Shown here in pieces: positions 24,201 to 27,200 of a DNA stretch of 64,000 nucleotides. The stretch's first letter is position 1. Each line of letters opens with the position of its first letter. This DNA comes from Prauserella cavernicola. Lineage in GTDB: Bacteria; Actinomycetota; Actinomycetes; Mycobacteriales; Pseudonocardiaceae. Location: positions 248,001 to 312,000 of the forward strand of contig NZ_JAENJH010000002.1 in NCBI RefSeq assembly GCF_016595675.1. Direction: 5' to 3'. Under the pieces are notes generated by a model. It was not told the DNA's origin, did no database searches, and worked only from the letters and a program-made list of their open reading frames with translations. The translations under genes and the position numbers were made by a program.

Positions 24201-27200
24201 TCGGCGACACTCGCCTCCGGACGCGCGGAGACGGCCTCGACGAGCCTGCCGAGTCGCTGCGCCAGGCCCTCGACGGTTCCGGAGTCGAACAGTTCGGTGC
24301 TGTACTCGACCCGGCAGCTCACGTGCCCGGTGTCGAGCCGTTCGGTGAAGCTGAACACCAGGTCGAACTTCGCGGTCTCGCTCGCGTACGGCACGAACTC
24401 CGCGCCCAGCCCCGGCAGGCTCAGCGACTCGCCTGTGCGGCCGTGGTAGCCGACCATCACCTGGAACAGCGGGTTGCGCGAGAGCGAGCGCGCCGGGTTC
24501 AGCCGCTCCACCACGGCCTCGAAGGGCACGTCGGCGTGGGAGAACGCGGCCAGGTCGGCCTCGCGCACACGCCGCACCAGCTCGGTGAAGCTCGGCGAGC
24601 CGGACAGGTCGGTGCGCAGCACGAGGGTGTTGACGAAGAAGCCGACCAGCTCGTCGAGCGCCGCGTCGGTGCGGCCCGCGATCGGGGCGCCGAGCGGGAT
24701 GTCCTCACCCGCGCCCATCCGGTGCAGCAGCGTAGCCACGGCGGCGTGCAGCACCATGAACATGCTGGCGCCGGTGTCCTGTCCCAGCGCGCGCAGGCGT
24801 TCGCACGCGGCCGGGTCGAGCTCGAACTCCAGGTCGGCGCCCGCGTAGGTCGGCCGGGCGGGCCGCGCGCGGTCGAGCGGCAGCTCCAGCTCCTCGGGTG
24901 CGCCGTCCAACGTGGACTCCCAGAATGCGAGCTGCTCGTCGCCGACGACGTCGAGCAGCCGCTGCTGCCACAGCGCGTAGTCGGCGTACTGCACCGGCAG
25001 CGGATCCCAGTCCGGAGCCGTCGCGTGCAGGCGCGCGGCGTAGGCGGTGGAGAGATCGCGCAGGAACGGGCGGTCGGACCACTCGTCTGTGGTGATGTGG
25101 TGCAGCAGCAGGACCACCACGTGGTCGTCGTCGGCCAGGCGCGCGATCGAGCAGCGCAGCGGCAGCTCCTCGGCGAGGTCGAAGGGCCGCGACACGGCGG
25201 CGCGCACGAACTGGCCCAGCTCGGCCTCAGTGGCCTGCGCCAGTTCCACCACCGGCTCCGCATCCTCGACGACGCGCTGGCGGGGCACGCCGTCGCGGTC
25301 GGCGAACACCGTGCGCAACGCCTCGTGCCTGGCCAGCACGTCGCGGAGCGCGGCACGCCACGCATCGAGGTCGAGTGAACCACGCAGCCGCACGACGAGC
25401 GGGAAGTTGTACGCCGCAGAGGTCTGCTCCAGGTTCTGGATCACCCACAGCCGTTGCTGCGCGGCCGAGGCGGGCAGCTCGGCGGGCCGCTCACCGGCGA
25501 CCAGCACGGGCCGCGCCTGCCTGCCGACGCGGCTCACCAGCTCGGCGACGGTCGGCGCCTCGAACAGGTCGCGAATGGACAGTTCGGTGTCCAGCGCGGT
25601 GCGCGCCCTGCTGACCAGCCGCGTGGCCAGCAGCGAATGCCCGCCGAGGTCGAAGAAGTTGTCGTCGATGCCCACCCCGTCGGCATCGAGCAGCTCGGCG
25701 AACAGCCCGCACAGTTCCTCTTCCTCGCGGGTGCGCGGCGGCCTGCTCTCACGCGCGGCGAACGACGGCGCCGGGAGTGCCTTGACGTCGAGCTTGCCGT
25801 TGACCGTCAGCGGCAGGTGGTCGACGACCACGACCGCGGCGGGCACCATGTAGTCGGGCAGCCGCGCCTTGAGGTGCTCGCGCCAGTCGGGCTCGCCGTC
25901 GGCGATGACGTACCCCACGAGCCGGCCCGCATTGACGACAACGGCCGCGTGCGTGACGGCGGGGTGCTCGGCCAGCGCCGACTCGATCTCGCCGAGCTCC
26001 ACCCGGTAGCCGCGGATCTTCACCTGGTCGTCGGTGCGGCCGAGGAAGTCGATGATCCCGCTACCCGGCCGCTGCCGGACGAGGTCTCCGGTCCGGTACA
26101 TCCGGCCGGTCTCGAACGGGTTGGCCACGAACCGTTCGGCCGTCAGCGAGGGCCGGTCATGGTAACCACGCGCGAGCCCGACACCCGCGATGTAGAGCTC
26201 ACCGGGCGTCCCCGGTGGCACGGGGCGCAGGAACGGGTCGAGCACGTAGGCCCTGGTGTTGAGGATGGGCCTGCCCACGGCGGGCGTCGCACTGTCCTGT
26301 GTGGATGCTCCGAGGGTGTTGATCGTGTACTCGGTCGGCCCGTAGAGGTTGTAGCCGTAGGTGCCCTCGGTCTCGGCCAGTGCGCTCCACACGCCGTCGG
26401 ACACGGCCTCGCCGCCGAGCAGCACCAGCGGCGGCACGTGGCCGTCGAGCAGGCCCTGTTCCAGCAGCAGCTGGGCGTAGGTCGGGGTCACGTTCACCAC
26501 GTCGACGCGGTGCTCGTCGCAGTAGGAGACCAGCGCCTCGGCGTCGCGGCGCAGCTGCTCGTCGCAGACGTGCACCTCGTGGCCCTCGACGAGCCAGAGC
26601 AGCTCCTCCCACGACATGTCGAACGCGAACGACACGGTGTGCGCGATGCGCAGCCGCCTGCCTCCCGCGGCGGCGATGGCGGGCGCGAAGATCTCCTCGC
26701 GGTGGTTGAGCTGCATGTTCGTGAGCCCGCGGTAGGGCGTGACCACGCCCTTGGGCCGCCCGGTGGAACCCGAGGTGTAGATCAGGTAGGCGGGCAGCTC
26801 GAGCCGATCCGGCGCGCCATGCGCGAACGAGGCCGCCACCTCGTGATCCCCAATGCCCTCCCCGGAACACGCGGCCAACTCAGCAACCACGTCACCCTGG
26901 TCCAGGTACACACACCGACTGCAGTGAAGGGCACCTTTACTGCACTCAACGCAGTAAAGGTGCCCTTCACCGCGGTCGCCGGTGGTGAGCACCACCAGGG
27001 GGTCGGCGTCGGCGAGCATGGTGGCCAGGCGGTCGGCCGGGTGGTCCAGGTCCAGCGGCAGGTACGCCGATCCCGTGCGCAGCACCGCGAACAACGCCAC
27101 CACCATGTCGATCGAGCGCGGCAGCGCGAGCGCCACCACCCGCTCCGGCCCCGCACCGCGCGCCAGCAGCAGGCGGGCCAGCCGGTTGACGCGGGCATCG

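What the first reader, a model, noticed from the sequence alone, without database searches (positions are those of the whole stretch)
26921..26973. Mobile-looking 53-bp palindrome inserted in frame inside an NRPS adenylation domain
The element occurs three times: perfect copies at 7369-7421 and 38158-38210 between convergent genes, and this copy, with one arm mismatch, in the coding sequence. Read on the gene strand it adds about 18 residues ([16 protein letters not shown] and flanks) between A-core motifs A2 and A3 of the hydroxyornithine module. The stretch between VV and PAYLI is 65 residues here against 34 in the A2 domain. An insertion that keeps the frame and is tolerated by a 13-kb gene resembles palindromic elements seen in proteins of Rickettsia, which I have not seen described in this setting. 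The hairpin in the mRNA could also slow or end transcription.
Basis: partly seen in the sequence, partly recalled or inferred. Interest (0 to 1): 0.82.

Follow-up and report, generated by a model that had tools for sequence, protein, structure and literature searches.

The report
Self-rewriting DNA hairpins inside bacterial genes
A short DNA hairpin repeated about 120 times in this actinobacterium mostly sits at the ends of genes, but one copy is spliced in frame into a peptide-making enzyme, and related species carry a differently spelled hairpin at many of the same spots, as if each species overwrites its copies with its own version.

Summary
The palindrome is real and repeated. G000 (same genus as Prauserella flavalba; 7.21 Mb) has 210 exact 17-base half-sites and 239 within 2 mismatches of a 20-base pattern, so about 120 copies. 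Of 95 read in context, 63 lie between convergent genes, 27 tandem, 3 divergent, 2 inside genes: this NRPS and nuoG.

It resembles a REPIN (two inverted hairpin units), but the Y1 transposase family gave no match in G000-G003 and no GTAG/CGTC foot tag is seen.

Relatives have family members at most mappable G000 sites, with other arms: loop GCA in G000, CCA in the relatives, bar one decayed G000 copy. Some copies are mosaics or another size form. Both in-gene copies show this: nuoG at equal length in three species, the NRPS site with three different palindromes. In two other genera the same nuoG loop holds a palindrome; in one it is the genome's own repeat.

Verdict: a REPIN-like family without detected RAYT, evolving in concert at fixed sites, coding ones included. 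The overwriting mechanism is inferred.

The parts
26921..26973 (.). 53-bp palindromic element (two inverted hairpin units around a short centre), in frame in the NRPS gene; extended arms 26916-26978
7368..7422 (.). copy of the element between convergent genes
38157..38211 (.). copy of the element between convergent genes, arms 100% complementary
21203..34606 (-). NRPS gene (Pfam: 4 AMP-binding, 5 condensation, 4 carrier stretches)
25760..27289 (-). third adenylation domain, holding the in-frame element
6621..7352 (+). gene on the left of the 7368 copy (simple codon-usage gene call)
7437..8468 (-). convergent gene on the right of the 7368 copy (gene call)
37204..38145 (+). gene on the left of the 38157 copy (gene call)
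38226..39224 (-). convergent gene on the right of the 38157 copy (gene call)

Best explanation
The palindrome belongs to a REPIN-like family of short, non-autonomous DNA hairpins found patchily in the bacterial family of this genome. Shown: a full copy is two inverted units (stem, AAGG, 3-nt loop, CCTT, stem) joined by a short centre, so one strand can fold into one long hairpin or two small ones. Shown: copies sit mainly just behind stop codons of convergent or tandem genes. Inferred: there they act as two-way 3'-end hairpins that stop or trim transcripts. Shown: most G000 sites that could be mapped are also occupied in relatives, but with another arm sequence, loop base or size form. Inferred: an overwriting process (ectopic conversion started at the hairpin, or insertion into an existing palindrome with loss of the old one) keeps the copies of one genome alike, and coding copies are swept along. 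The NRPS copy is an old in-frame insertion into a length-variable loop, tolerated there and since rewritten in each lineage.
For: Copy number with zero control. Wider pattern: 13 of 390 family genomes match, with G000 85, G002 166, G001 213 and G003 none. 63 of 95 copies convergent, while convergent gaps are 3498 of 34608 intergenic bp in a 400-kb stretch. Of 14 G000 sites in 400 kb: 9 shared with G001, 1 absent, 1 rearranged, 3 without flank. Against named Prauserella loci, 18 of 20 site pairs shared, 2 absent (these loci were fetched because they hold an element, and 3 of the pairs repeat sites). Loop GCA in 188 of 190 G000 halves; CCA in 78/78, 36/36 and 72/72 halves of three relatives. Mosaic at C22:223888: left arm as in G002 but for the loop base, right arm of G000 type. 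53-bp form in G000 where relatives have the long form or a single unit. nuoG: equal-length swap with flanks aligned to the edge. Stem pairing 92.7% against 79.5% shuffled; 14 of 26 positions with two or more Watson-Crick types.
Against: No enzyme was found: PF01797 gave no match in G000-G003, and no other transposase family was searched. No clear target duplication or clean empty site. Several G001 sites are empty in G000, so gain and loss occur as well. No U-tract terminator was called in the stretch scanned, 26500-38500, which holds two of the three copies. Ordinary gene conversion should not readily change the outermost bases of a repeat whose flanks are unrelated, yet these change. Function at gene ends is inferred from position only.
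Confidence: 0.72

Rival explanations
1. Each species acquired its own palindromes independently at the same favoured sites (target-site preference or the few tolerated gaps), so the differing sequences at one site are separate insertions.
For: nuoG of three genera carries palindromes in one loop although several of their congeners lack them; convergent gaps are few (51 in 400 kb of G000).
Against: Mosaic copies keep part of the relative's element at the same site (C22:223888; outer ends at the NRPS and 226-kb sites). 9 of 10 G000 sites with usable flanks and no rearrangement are shared with G001, although at most 14 elements lie in the 56 convergent gaps of the G001 stretch.
Confidence: 0.2
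2. The elements are binding sites of a protein whose preference changed; point mutations at each site followed by selection.
For: The first loop base is nearly uniform within each Prauserella set and differs between G000 and the others; other genera show other loop triplets.
Against: Mean identity of whole 53-bp copies within G000 is 0.945; changes of size form and outer stems point to copying rather than scattered mutations at about 120 sites.
Confidence: 0.08
3. Plain intrinsic terminators shaped by selection, not a repeat family.
For: Position behind stop codons; a hairpin of about -55 kcal/mol; at C22:178006 G000 has an unrelated hairpin where G001 and G002 have the palindrome.
Against: Near-identity of copies; no T-run at the two copies scanned; two copies inside long open genes.
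Confidence: 0.05

Closest known systems
REPINs / REP-BIME elements (PMC3116915, PMC2817692, PMC3733652; passages read)
   Same: Short hairpin units in inverted pairs, high copy, between convergent and unidirectional genes, supplying stop codons, sometimes within ORFs.
   Different: No match to the Y1 transposase family in G000-G003 and no GTAG/CGTC foot tag. Shared sites with a species-wide different sequence are seen here; the passages read do not describe this for REPINs. REP-type repeats in Actinomycetota as such are not new: PMC12306157 tabulates three such genomes (passage), none of this family.
Rickettsia palindromic elements in coding genes (search listings only; details recalled)
   Same: A palindrome inserted in frame in unrelated protein genes.
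   Different: Only 2 of 95 copies read are inside genes here; unit 53 bp (Rickettsia elements recalled as longer). No sequence comparison made.
Gene conversion as a driver of REP evolution (Higgins 1988; seen only as a reference title)
   Same: The idea that REP copies evolve by conversion.
   Different: Here orthologous sites of several species are compared, with mosaic copies and coding copies.

Membership tests
REPIN (RAYT-associated inverted REP pair) | Two inverted REP-like hairpin units forming one long hairpin, high copy number | tested here: met
REPIN (RAYT-associated inverted REP pair) | Preference for intergenic 3' ends (convergent or unidirectional neighbours) | tested here: met
   90 of 95 copies convergent or tandem
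REPIN (RAYT-associated inverted REP pair) | RAYT (Y1 transposase) in the genome | tested here: not met
   PF01797: no match in G000-G003; 5 of 14 control genomes, E. coli among them, positive
REPIN (RAYT-associated inverted REP pair) | GTAG- or CGTC-type tag at the foot of the hairpin | tested here: not met
   GTAG/CTAC in 17 and CGTC/GACG in 18 of 190 15-nt flanks; column counts show no such tag at a fixed place
MITE | Target-site duplication and a parent transposon | tested here: inconclusive
   Site alignments show no clear duplication; parent transposons other than Y1 were not searched
Rickettsia palindromic element | Sequence kinship with RPE families | not tested
   No RPE sequence was fetched
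Factor-independent terminator | GC-rich hairpin followed by a U-tract | tested here: not met
   Hairpin present; no T-run call at the two copies in the stretch scanned; the 7368 copy was not scanned

The most novel reading that the evidence does not exclude
A dedicated, RAYT-independent process recognises resident hairpins in this bacterial family and overwrites them in place with the current genomic version, so that protein segments in NuoG and an NRPS evolve in concert with intergenic terminator-like repeats; the 3-nt loop is the lineage-specific address.
Probability: 0.3. Interest if true: 0.85.

Novelty: new variant of a known kind. Interest (0 to 1): 0.64.

Why it matters
Gene conversion has been proposed as a driver of REP evolution (reference title only), but comparison needs copies at the same sites in several species. 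Here such sites can be read side by side, with mosaic copies and size changes, and two of them lie in protein genes, so the process changes protein sequence. The nuoG loop, which holds palindromes in three genera, gives a marker in which insertion, loss and rewriting can be followed across a bacterial family. That no RAYT was detected makes the agent of the process an open, testable question.

Tried and rejected
RAYT as mover: PF01797 gave no match in 10 of 12 genomes tested. Of the two with a match, G026's better hit sits beside a TnpB-like ORF, as in an ordinary IS200/IS605 element (judged by eye from the translation); G015's hit and G026's second were looked at only as gene calls and palindrome scans. 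Phage carriage: one exact pattern, 0 matches in viral contigs. Rfam: no match in the window. Chance: excluded by shuffles and reversed-pattern controls. The G171 nuoG palindrome flagged was set aside because its second arm is the conserved downstream coding sequence. The CxxC pairs in the NRPS loop ([14 protein letters not shown]) are not conserved in G001 or G002, so no metal site is claimed. Ten paper searches listed nothing that by title or abstract start treats this repeat in Prauserella, Amycolatopsis or Pseudonocardiaceae; some searches listed only 12 of 45, 16 and 40 papers, and only five papers were opened, for passages.

One search covers 95 of about 120 copies. One search skipped 10 copies near locus ends.

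Full report
Observation. The window holds three copies of one palindrome: 7368-7422, 26916-26978 and 38157-38211. Six half-sites were found against 0.00 expected in shuffles. The second copy is inside the 4467-aa NRPS ORF 21203-34606 (-), in its third adenylation domain. The stated 65 against 34 residues is right. The claim of perfect copies is slightly off for 7368 (96%), and the in-gene copy has three rather than one non-Watson-Crick pairs; as RNA on the gene strand it still folds into one closed hairpin.

How many. The window lies in G000 (90 contigs, 7.21 Mb). The exact 17-mer occurs 102 + 108 times with no reversed-control match; with up to 2 mismatches a 20-mer occurs 120 + 119 times, so about 120 copies at two halves each. 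71 have a perfect 41-bp core. The 17-mer is absent from the 59 other genomes, three of them of the same genus. A wider pattern that lets the variable positions float matches 13 of 390 family genomes: G001 213, G002 166, G000 85, G171 71, G022 40, G289 27, G026 6, G009 2, G201 2, and one each in G169, G298, G413 and G012. So the genus is taken to be Prauserella; the family name Pseudonocardiaceae is recalled.

Anatomy. In 117 distinct 53-bp copies from four Prauserella sets, 92.7% of stem cells pair against 79.5% when the 3' letters are dealt anew, and 14 of 26 stem positions show two or more Watson-Crick types. The copies are related, so this is not a formal covariation test. Each arm is itself a small hairpin: stem, AAGG, three loop bases, CCTT, stem. 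The half-unit motif TGAAGGNNNCCTTCA has 260 matches in G001, 241 in G002, 85 in G022, 57 in G017, 52 in G012, 37 in G010, 35 in G009, 25 in G021 and 11 in G033; no other of the 60 genomes, G026 (7) and G000 (5) included, exceeds 7, and the reversed control is 0 to 2. Among the G017 sites listed there, six pairs are 30 bp apart, the spacing of the 53-bp element; the six units read in G021 are single. G001 and G002 also have single units and a long form with a spacer of about 60 bp.

Where copies sit. I wrote a simple codon-usage gene caller. Of 95 distinct G000 copies read in context (of about 120; four perfect ones and further imperfect ones were not fetched), 63 are between convergent genes, 27 between tandem genes, 3 between divergent genes and 2 inside genes. 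In a 400-kb stretch convergent gaps make up 3498 of 34608 intergenic bp (the elements are counted in these gaps). At 13 of 126 convergent gene ends the distance is -7, that is, the gene ends at the TGA inside the element (inferred from the distance). In the 80 Prauserella loci, 58 of 85 classified copies are convergent, 23 tandem, 2 divergent and 2 inside, 10 more being skipped near locus ends; the two inside are genes called as starting within the element.

The same sites in relatives. G001 and G002 carry at the NRPS site not this sequence but their own palindromes: a single unit in G001, a full one with other stems in G002. G003 and three other genera show none there, and the loop varies in length anyway (by eye). 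I fetched syntenic 400-kb stretches. Of 14 G000 site clusters, 9 are shared with G001, 1 is absent, 1 rearranged and 3 have no flank; with G002 7 are shared, 2 absent and 5 have no flank. G001 against G002: 12 shared, 2 absent, 1 rearranged, 8 without flank; by my reading of that listing 3 of the 12 differ in outer stem type although flanks are 93-97% identical. Conversely, several G001 sites are empty in G000. Against the named loci 18 of 20 site pairs (19 G000 sites) are shared and 2 absent (biased, because these loci were fetched for holding an element, and three pairs repeat sites). In these listings the shared G000 sites have loop GCA in G000 and CCA in the relative, except the decayed G000 copy at 231 kb. 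Over all copies read, GCA is in 188 of 190 G000 halves, CCA in 78/78, 36/36 and 72/72 halves of P. flavalba, G002 and P. endophytica.

Replacement rather than new insertion. At C22:223888 the G000 left arm equals the G002 left arm at that site except for the loop base, while the right arm is the G000 consensus. At the NRPS site the outer end CACTGCAGTC (gene strand) of G000 is shared with G001, and at 226 kb an outer end is shared with G002. Where relatives have the long form (204 and 286 kb, L185, L108) or single units (202 kb), G000 has its 53-bp form. Only 5 of 95 G000 copies have a half with three or more differences from the consensus. I read this as concerted evolution at fixed sites. 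What carries it out is not shown: PF01797 gave no match in G000-G003 while E. coli and four other control genomes were positive.

nuoG. The second in-gene copy is in nuoG, C22:188923-191424 (-), outside the window. G000, G001 and G002 have 55 bp at one place, flanks aligning to the edge, encoding [18 protein letters not shown] in G000 and SPKATLGALSATKVALGA in G001 and G002. I then read 59 nuoG genes of the family (30; 29 of 30, G213 giving no match at that threshold). The script tested 47 loops: 9 had a palindrome that none of 300 codon shuffles matched; I set G171 aside, leaving 8: G000-G002, G294-G296 of genus g33 and G155, G160 of g15. Of the other 12, G167 and G202 were tested without a strong palindrome, and all 12 were read by eye. 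In G155 and G160 the nuoG palindrome has the unit CCAATGNNNCATTGG, which occurs 142 and 111 times in those genomes (control 1 and 0). For g33 a genome-wide family was not shown. Against a general rule: G218, G158 and G164 have 36, 11 and 6 such units but none is seen in their nuoG, and repeat-bearing G022, G289, G026, G009 and G012 have none there either. Four g33 genomes (G297, G298, G299, G035) and G003 also lack it, so there were several gains, or an old gain with losses. The loop aligns to a poorly matched stretch of NuoG chain 8e9g_G (recalled as mycobacterial); that it is a tolerant linker is inference.

Literature. Passages of PMC3733652, PMC3116915, PMC2817692, PMC12306157 and PMC8049555 were read. 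They describe REPs at convergent and unidirectional gene ends, as stop codon donors and inside ORFs, and REPINs as RAYT-linked inverted pairs; PMC12306157 tabulates REPs for three Actinomycetota. None of those passages treats Pseudonocardiaceae. Ten searches listed no account of this family (some lists cut).

Verdict. It works like a REPIN family but fails two REPIN tests (RAYT, foot tag). The in-frame NRPS insertion is genuine, older than its present sequence and tolerated in a variable loop. The new point is the species-wide rewriting of hairpins at fixed sites, including coding ones.

Noticed in passing
G000:C22:188923-191424 (L054:8923-11424, minus strand): nuoG carries a second in-frame copy; the same nuoG loop holds other palindromes in G001, G002, G294-G296, G155 and G160.
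   Followed up: yes
L340 (G160) and L343 (G155): A different repeat, unit CCAATGNNNCATTGG, is present 111 and 142 times in two g15 genomes and in their nuoG loop.
   Followed up: partly
L229 (G017) and L337 (G202): Their nuoG loop encodes a direct repeat MKDAFIADFAMKDAFIA, from a tandem hairpin-like unit.
   Followed up: no
G001 and G002 syntenic stretches (L065-L104): A long form of about 95-110 bp, two inverted units around a spacer, occupies some sites where G000 has the 53-bp form.
   Followed up: partly
G000:C22 near 178006 (L053): G000 has an unrelated GC-rich hairpin where G001 and G002 have the family palindrome.
   Followed up: no
L168 and L181: Genes called as starting inside the element (proteins beginning VKATL/VKATF); such repeats may cause wrong start sites in annotation.
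   Followed up: no
window 26921-26973, minus strand: The NRPS loop peptide contains two CxxC pairs; they are not conserved in the relatives.
   Followed up: yes
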